A DNA stretch of 64,000 nucleotides, taken from positions 119,043-183,042 of the forward strand of contig JAEEXI010000006.1 of NCBI GenBank assembly GCA_016291495.1. Reading direction: 5' to 3'. This document shows, piece after piece, positions 4,696 through 4,904 of this stretch. Both the position numbers and the translations under genes were made by a program. How positions within the stretch are numbered: position 1 is the stretch's first letter; every line of letters begins with the position of its first letter. The notes under the pieces were generated by a model. The model saw nothing but the letters and a program-made list of their open reading frames with translations. It was not told the origin of the DNA and made no database searches. This stretch comes from Prevotella sp. Its GTDB lineage: Bacteria > Bacteroidota > Bacteroidia > Bacteroidales > Bacteroidaceae.

Positions 4696-4904
4696 ACGCT
4701 ATACCAACTCTATACCAACTCTATACCAACTCTATACCAAGTCTATGGTAACTCCTAGGTAACTCCCACTCAACTCTAGGGTAACTCTAAGGCAACTCTA
4801 TACTTGCTCTATACTTACTCTATACTTACTCTATACTTACTCTATTCCCAAGGGATAGAGCAGGCATAGAGAGTACTTAGAGAATACGTAGAGAATACTT
4901 AGAG
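4696..4904. repeat. 11-bp-register tandem array, 19 units, strand switch after unit 14
   Basis: acgctatacca/actctatacca x3/...actctatactt.../actctattccc then aagggatagag/caggcatagag/agtacttagag/aatacgtagag/aatacttagag; every unit 11 bp. Confidence 0.95.

What the first reader, a model, noticed from the sequence alone, without database searches (positions are those of the whole stretch)
4696..4904. 19-unit array in strict 11-bp register with a strand switch
The sequence splits without a single indel into 19 units of 11 bp. Units 1-14 mostly carry CTCTA at a fixed position (actctatacca, actctatactt). Units 15-19 carry its reverse complement TAGAG (aatacttagag). The junction ctctattccc-aa-gggatagag is itself a palindrome. 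Individual units are degenerate while spacing is exact, so the period looks constrained, as in phased protein sites or an A-form RNA helix of about 11 bp per turn. The array ends 5 bp from the stop codon of the BadF-like kinase. No element class I know explains it.
Basis: partly seen in the sequence, partly recalled or inferred. Interest (0 to 1): 0.82.

Follow-up and report, generated by a model that had tools for sequence, protein, structure and literature searches.

The report
Repeat-array RNA gene, eleven-base period
The array is the body of a small multi-copy gene (promoter, hairpin, eleven-base repeats, mirror-image end) that probably derives from the untranslated front end of an uncharacterised protein gene (DUF6266), where the same eleven-base repeats recur across the Bacteroidota.

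Summary
In detail: 4696-4904 is 19 exact 11-bp units with a strand switch (lag-11 identity 0.75; best of 2000 shuffles over all lags 0.43). The coordinates are too narrow. The array is the body of a unit of about 315 bp: a Bacteroidota promoter (TAACTTTG, 4618-4625), a hairpin with compensatory changes among relatives (4642-4680), 14 direct units, a dyad and five inverted units. The own genome holds nine copies; six other genomes of the genus have relatives. Unit order is conserved between copies and length changes come in 11-nt steps, so it is not a neutral microsatellite. One own copy runs into the genome's only DUF6266 gene, and the same arrangement occurs in other genomes. Upstream of 45 DUF6266 genes across the phylum, 11-nt periodicity is strongly enriched (17 versus 0.3 expected). 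I read this copy as a gene-less, dispersed derivative of a DUF6266 leader. The array most likely works as a ladder of binding sites for a sequence-specific factor, on RNA or DNA; transcription and binding are inferred. The A-form RNA idea is not supported, and period 11 is not special genus-wide. No paper found describes this.

The parts
4594..4625 (+). Predicted promoter: CTTG (-33-like, 4594-4597), 20 nt, TAACTTTG (-7 box, 4618-4625)
   Evidence: Conserved in all copies (TATCTTTGC in the others); matches the Bacteroides consensus TTTG/TAnnTTTG
4631..4904 (+). Predicted transcript (start inferred about 7 nt after the -7 box; end unknown)
   Evidence: Inference from promoter position and limits of homology between copies; no expression data
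4642..4680 (+). Leader hairpin; in this copy the outer stem is weakened and the inner stem CATCTT/AAGATG (4652-4671) extended
   Evidence: Folds in nearly all copies; compensatory changes at three of eight outer pairs among 14 copies
4696..4849 (+). Direct arm: 14 units of 11 bp, core CTCTA
   Evidence: unit order shared with other copies
4840..4860 (.). Dyad centre CTCTATTCCCAAGGGATAGAG
   Evidence: equivalent dyad in the other copies
4850..4904 (+). Inverted arm: 5 units with TAGAG
4910..5806 (-). Flanking sugar-kinase gene (BadF-like, related to N-acetylglucosamine/MurNAc kinases); context, not part of the unit
3190..4482 (-). Flanking GH5-like glycoside hydrolase gene; context; its likely -7 box (TATCTTTGC on the minus strand) is at 4531-4539
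19366..19570 (+). Sibling array of the second subfamily (CTCATAGG units, dyad near 19490, inverted ATGAG units)
   Evidence: L062 carries both kinds of unit in one array

Best explanation
The feature is one of nine copies, in this genome, of a small promoter-bearing unit whose body is an 11-nt-phased repeat array. Shown by sequence: promoter boxes, leader hairpin with compensatory changes, array with conserved unit order, dyad and inverted arm, sharp limits of homology between copies, and copies that run directly into a DUF6266 gene. Inferred: the unit derives from the 5' leader of DUF6266 genes, and copies such as this one lack the gene and stand alone between other genes. Inferred mechanism: the array is a ladder of equally spaced sites (unit core TCWA; AASTCYRTAYC upstream of DUF6266 in other families) for a sequence-specific factor that binds or oligomerises along it. 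In DUF6266 genes it would control expression from the leader; solo copies would act as separate small RNAs or as decoys for the same factor. Whether the factor reads RNA or the DNA just downstream of the promoter is not settled; the position behind a promoter favours RNA.
For: Nine own copies and matches in six other genomes with a model of promoter, hairpin and first units. Conserved -7 box. Compensatory hairpin changes. Position-specific units: 0.89 identity for the same unit against 0.47 for different units between own copies. Length changes of 11 or 22 nt only. The own genome's only DUF6266 gene follows one copy, although DUF6266 is rare in the genus (3 of 60); same arrangement in G335/G299, G238 and G138. 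Upstream of 45 DUF6266 genes lag 11 passes in 17, shuffles 0.3, other genes 2 of 31; motif at 10 of 11 letters in 10 of 42, shuffles 1.4, other genes 0 of 27, spacing 11 in 13 of 19. Six of eight solo copies face a convergent downstream gene, so they are not leaders of their neighbours.
Against: No expression or binding data. More than half of DUF6266 genes show no clear array. In some loci outside Bacteroidales the array seems to lie upstream of the likely promoter, which fits DNA sites better. The second subfamily of 16 copies shows no consistent promoter. The motif was partly read from the loci on which it was then counted.
Confidence: 0.5

Rival explanations
1. A non-autonomous, selfish dispersed repeat (like the BrickBuilt element of Porphyromonas gingivalis) that carries a promoter and a minisatellite and has no role for the cell.
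For: Dispersed intergenic copies with unrelated flanks; absent at the same site in the nearest genome with the same gene order; in G238 two of three copies lack the gene and end at different points.
Against: No terminal inverted repeats in 9 of 10 copies and no target duplications; leader hairpin kept by compensatory change; 11-nt arrays recur with DUF6266 across the phylum.
Confidence: 0.2
2. DNA operator array: 11 bp is about one helical turn, so a protein binds successive sites on one face of the duplex and controls the promoter next to it; the RNA is incidental.
For: Exact phasing with degenerate units; arrays upstream of the likely promoter in some DUF6266 loci; array RNA not structured; some 10-nt units in L062.
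Against: In most Bacteroidales loci, and in all copies of this subfamily, the array lies downstream of the promoter.
Confidence: 0.2
3. Rho loading site: the C-rich, G-poor array with cytosines every 11 nt recruits Rho and ends transcription early, as a silencer or terminator.
For: Meets the published rut search criteria (C/G above 1 and C every 11-13 nt in 78 nt; PMC6407284): C/G is 4.0 here; both arms present CTC to an incoming transcript.
Against: C/G is only about 1.0-1.2 in several copies; sequence is conserved beyond C content; 6 of 21 arrays lie between divergent genes.
Confidence: 0.15
4. A neutral tandem repeat produced by slippage.
For: The genus is rich in tandem arrays of several periods; steps of 11 nt are also what slippage gives.
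Against: Degenerate units keep phase in all 13 arrays compared; units are position-specific between copies; promoter and hairpin go with the array.
Confidence: 0.05

Closest known systems
BrickBuilt element of Porphyromonas gingivalis (PMC4596501)
   Same: Intergenic, 19 copies, leader and tail around a minisatellite, promoter activity, Bacteroidales
   Different: 23-nt units, terminal inverted repeats of IS5 type, restricted to Porphyromonas; here 11-nt units, no terminal repeats, and a link to a protein gene
FopS paralogous sRNAs of Bacteroides thetaiotaomicron (PMC11697453)
   Same: Multi-copy, mostly intergenic RNA genes with the same promoter type
   Different: 65-70 nt and not repetitive; they pair with mRNAs; here about 270 nt built of 11-nt units
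TAACTGA heptamer repeats of Beggiatoaceae, Cyanobacteria and some Bacteroidetes (PMC4679880)
   Different: 7-nt identical units, no promoter or hairpin described as part of them
CsrB-type protein-sequestering RNAs (from general knowledge)
   Same: Many degenerate protein sites on one small RNA
   Different: GGA motifs in hairpin loops bound by CsrA; here a mostly unstructured, strictly phased ladder and no known partner

Membership tests
Miniature inverted-repeat element (BrickBuilt type) | Terminal inverted repeats | tested here: not met
   9 of 10 copies no better than shuffles; one copy (L142) has an 11-bp inverted match
Miniature inverted-repeat element (BrickBuilt type) | Target-site duplications | tested here: not met
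   No direct repeat better than shuffles at approximate ends in 10 copies; exact junctions unknown
Miniature inverted-repeat element (BrickBuilt type) | Dispersed intergenic copies without a transposase | tested here: met
   Nine own copies, unrelated flanks
Multi-copy sRNA family (FopS type) | Own promoter of sigma-ABfr type | tested here: met
   TAnnTTTG in all own copies
Multi-copy sRNA family (FopS type) | Detected transcript | not testable with these tools
   No RNA data at hand
Multi-copy sRNA family (FopS type) | Length about 65-70 nt without repeats | tested here: not met
   Unit of about 270 nt made of 11-nt repeats
DUF6266 leader array | 11-nt array upstream of a DUF6266 gene | tested here: not met
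   This copy has no DUF6266 gene; its sister copy on C24 has
DUF6266 leader array | Same promoter, leader hairpin and first units as gene-bearing copies | tested here: met
Rho rut site | C above G with cytosines every 11-13 nt over about 78 nt | tested here: met
   C/G 4.0 over 154 nt, CTC every 11 nt; criteria from PMC6407284
Rho rut site | Rho-dependent termination | not testable with these tools
   Needs an experiment
Known Rfam family | Match above a family's curated score | tested here: not met
   No match in the window; only weak microRNA-type chance matches at relaxed threshold

The most novel reading that the evidence does not exclude
A phylum-wide regulatory class: 11-nt-phased leader arrays that belong with DUF6266 proteins, whose gene-less copies became a family of trans-acting decoy RNAs in some genomes of this genus.
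Probability: 0.3. Interest if true: 0.8.

Novelty: new variant of a known kind. Interest (0 to 1): 0.6.

Why it matters
It gives a first handle on DUF6266, a widespread Bacteroidota protein family of unknown function, and ties it to a strictly phased nucleic-acid array. If the array binds a factor, exact 11-nt phasing with degenerate units would be an unusual recognition mode that a single pull-down could test. It also shows that some of the tandem-repeat noise in gut and rumen Bacteroidales is organised into promoter-bearing units.

Tried and rejected
A-form RNA duplex: folding z-scores average -0.8 sense and -0.7 antisense. Terminator of neighbouring genes: 6 of 21 arrays sit between divergent genes. 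Period 11 as a genus-wide rule: 9-, 10- and 12-bp CTC arrays also occur, though the own genome has none of these. Mobility from G335 and G299: I first took these as one unit at different sites; they are the same locus (91.7% over 3 kb). Phage, plasmid or viral origin: DUF6266 not found in those collections, array not found in viral contigs. Defence or named family for DUF6266: no PADLOC or NCBIfam hit and no convincing PHROG hit. Rfam: nothing. Papers: none naming DUF6266, none on 11-bp arrays in Prevotella. A 325-aa protein after a promoter-hairpin-array in G082 (L127) looked DUF6266-like by one motif, but Pfam did not confirm it.

Full report
OBSERVATION. Positions 4696-4904 divide into 19 units of 11 bp without an indel. 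CTCTA and TAGAG each occur at one phase only. Lag-11 identity is 0.75, against at most 0.43 for any lag from 5 to 30 in 2000 shuffles. The array ends 5 bp before the stop codon of a minus-strand sugar kinase (PDB relatives at E 2e-78); on the other side lies a minus-strand GH5-like gene.

THE UNIT IS LARGER. Comparing copies showed a conserved block before the array: a promoter of the Bacteroidota type (consensus TTTG and TAnnTTTG; PMC7366714), 16 nt, then a hairpin, then the array. Among 14 copies the hairpin shows compensatory changes at three of eight outer pairs, one of them with three pair types. In three more distant copies (L139, L140, L144) the leader sequence differs but still folds into a hairpin. 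Homology between own copies starts about 45 nt before the -7 box, stops at the end of the inverted arm, and does not extend into the flanks.

COPIES. A covariance model of promoter, hairpin and first units finds nine copies in the own genome and matches in six of 398 other genomes of the genus. A second subfamily with CTCATAGG units has 16 copies in the own genome, one of them in this window at 19366-19570. A relative in a public rumen assembly (L062, RUG14488) carries both kinds of unit in one array. The nearest genome with the same gene order around this site lacks the array (L068).

WHAT IS CONSERVED. Array units are not interchangeable: unit i of one own copy matches unit i of another at 0.89 and other units at 0.47 (five copies of equal length). 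The first five units are nearly the same in other species. Length differences are 11 or 22 nt. Phase is kept in all 13 arrays compared; exceptions elsewhere are L062, which has some 10-nt units, and L140, which loses the pattern after five units.

DUF6266. In the own genome the array of the C24 copy is followed directly by the only DUF6266 gene; the same holds in G335 and G299 (one locus in two close genomes), G238 and G138. DUF6266 is rare in the genus (3 of 60), so chance is an unlikely explanation. I then looked at DUF6266 genes across the order and phylum. In the 300 nt upstream of 45 of them, 17 pass the lag-11 test and 12 the lag-22 test; shuffles give 0.3 and 0.45, other lags 0-4, other genes in the same loci 2 of 31. 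The motif AASTCYRTAYC reaches 10 of 11 letters in 10 of 42, shuffles 1.4, other genes 0 of 27, and 13 of 19 successive spacings are exactly 11. The motif was partly read from these loci, so the lag test is the independent one. In Bacteroidales these arrays usually sit between a TAnnTTTG-like box and the start codon (read by eye).

THE DUF6266 PROTEIN. An AlphaFold2 model (mean pLDDT 89) has a small N-terminal beta part, helices and a C-terminal FN3 domain; Foldseek finds only FN3 domains. Its function stays unknown.

HOW IT MAY WORK. Solo copies are separate units: six of eight face a convergent downstream gene. The array RNA is on average no more structured than shuffled sequence, so an accessible ladder of sites with fixed spacing is the simplest reading. 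I favour a sequence-specific factor acting on DUF6266 leaders, with solo copies as separate RNAs or decoys. Rho loading, DNA operators and a selfish repeat remain open. None of this has been shown by experiment.

LIMITS. Genus-wide, tandem CTC arrays of other periods are common, so a periodic array alone does not identify this family.

Noticed in passing
19576-19661: Next to the sibling array, four palindromes (GTTTACGnnnCGTAAAC type) at 21-bp spacing; several genomes of the genus carry 11-bp arrays beside 21- or 22-bp palindrome arrays of different sequence (L118, L121, L124, L134).
   Followed up: partly
21943-21974, 22069-22100, 22918-22949, 23076-23112, 31819-31852, 50800-50832, 63638-63698: Heptamer (7- or 14-bp) tandem arrays, several C-rich and G-free; reminiscent of the intergenic heptamer repeats of PMC4679880.
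   Followed up: no
L204-L212 (G047, G097): Two other genomes of the genus carry multi-locus CTC arrays with a 10-bp period, in G097 often between a stop codon and the next start codon; period seems species-specific.
   Followed up: partly
L127 (G082), minus strand: Promoter, unrelated hairpin and 11-nt array directly before a 325-aa protein with an NPQTxxQxxQR motif like that of DUF6266 but no Pfam match.
   Followed up: partly
L169, L182, L177: DUF6266 genes preceded by the end of a small, apparently membrane-spanning protein gene (…IVGG…NLLKKKFPEWF…) and the 11-nt array between the two genes.
   Followed up: no
4696-4904, minus strand: The reverse-complement unit TTGGTATAGAG resembles the tRNA D-arm sequence TTGGTAGAGC; probably chance.
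   Followed up: no
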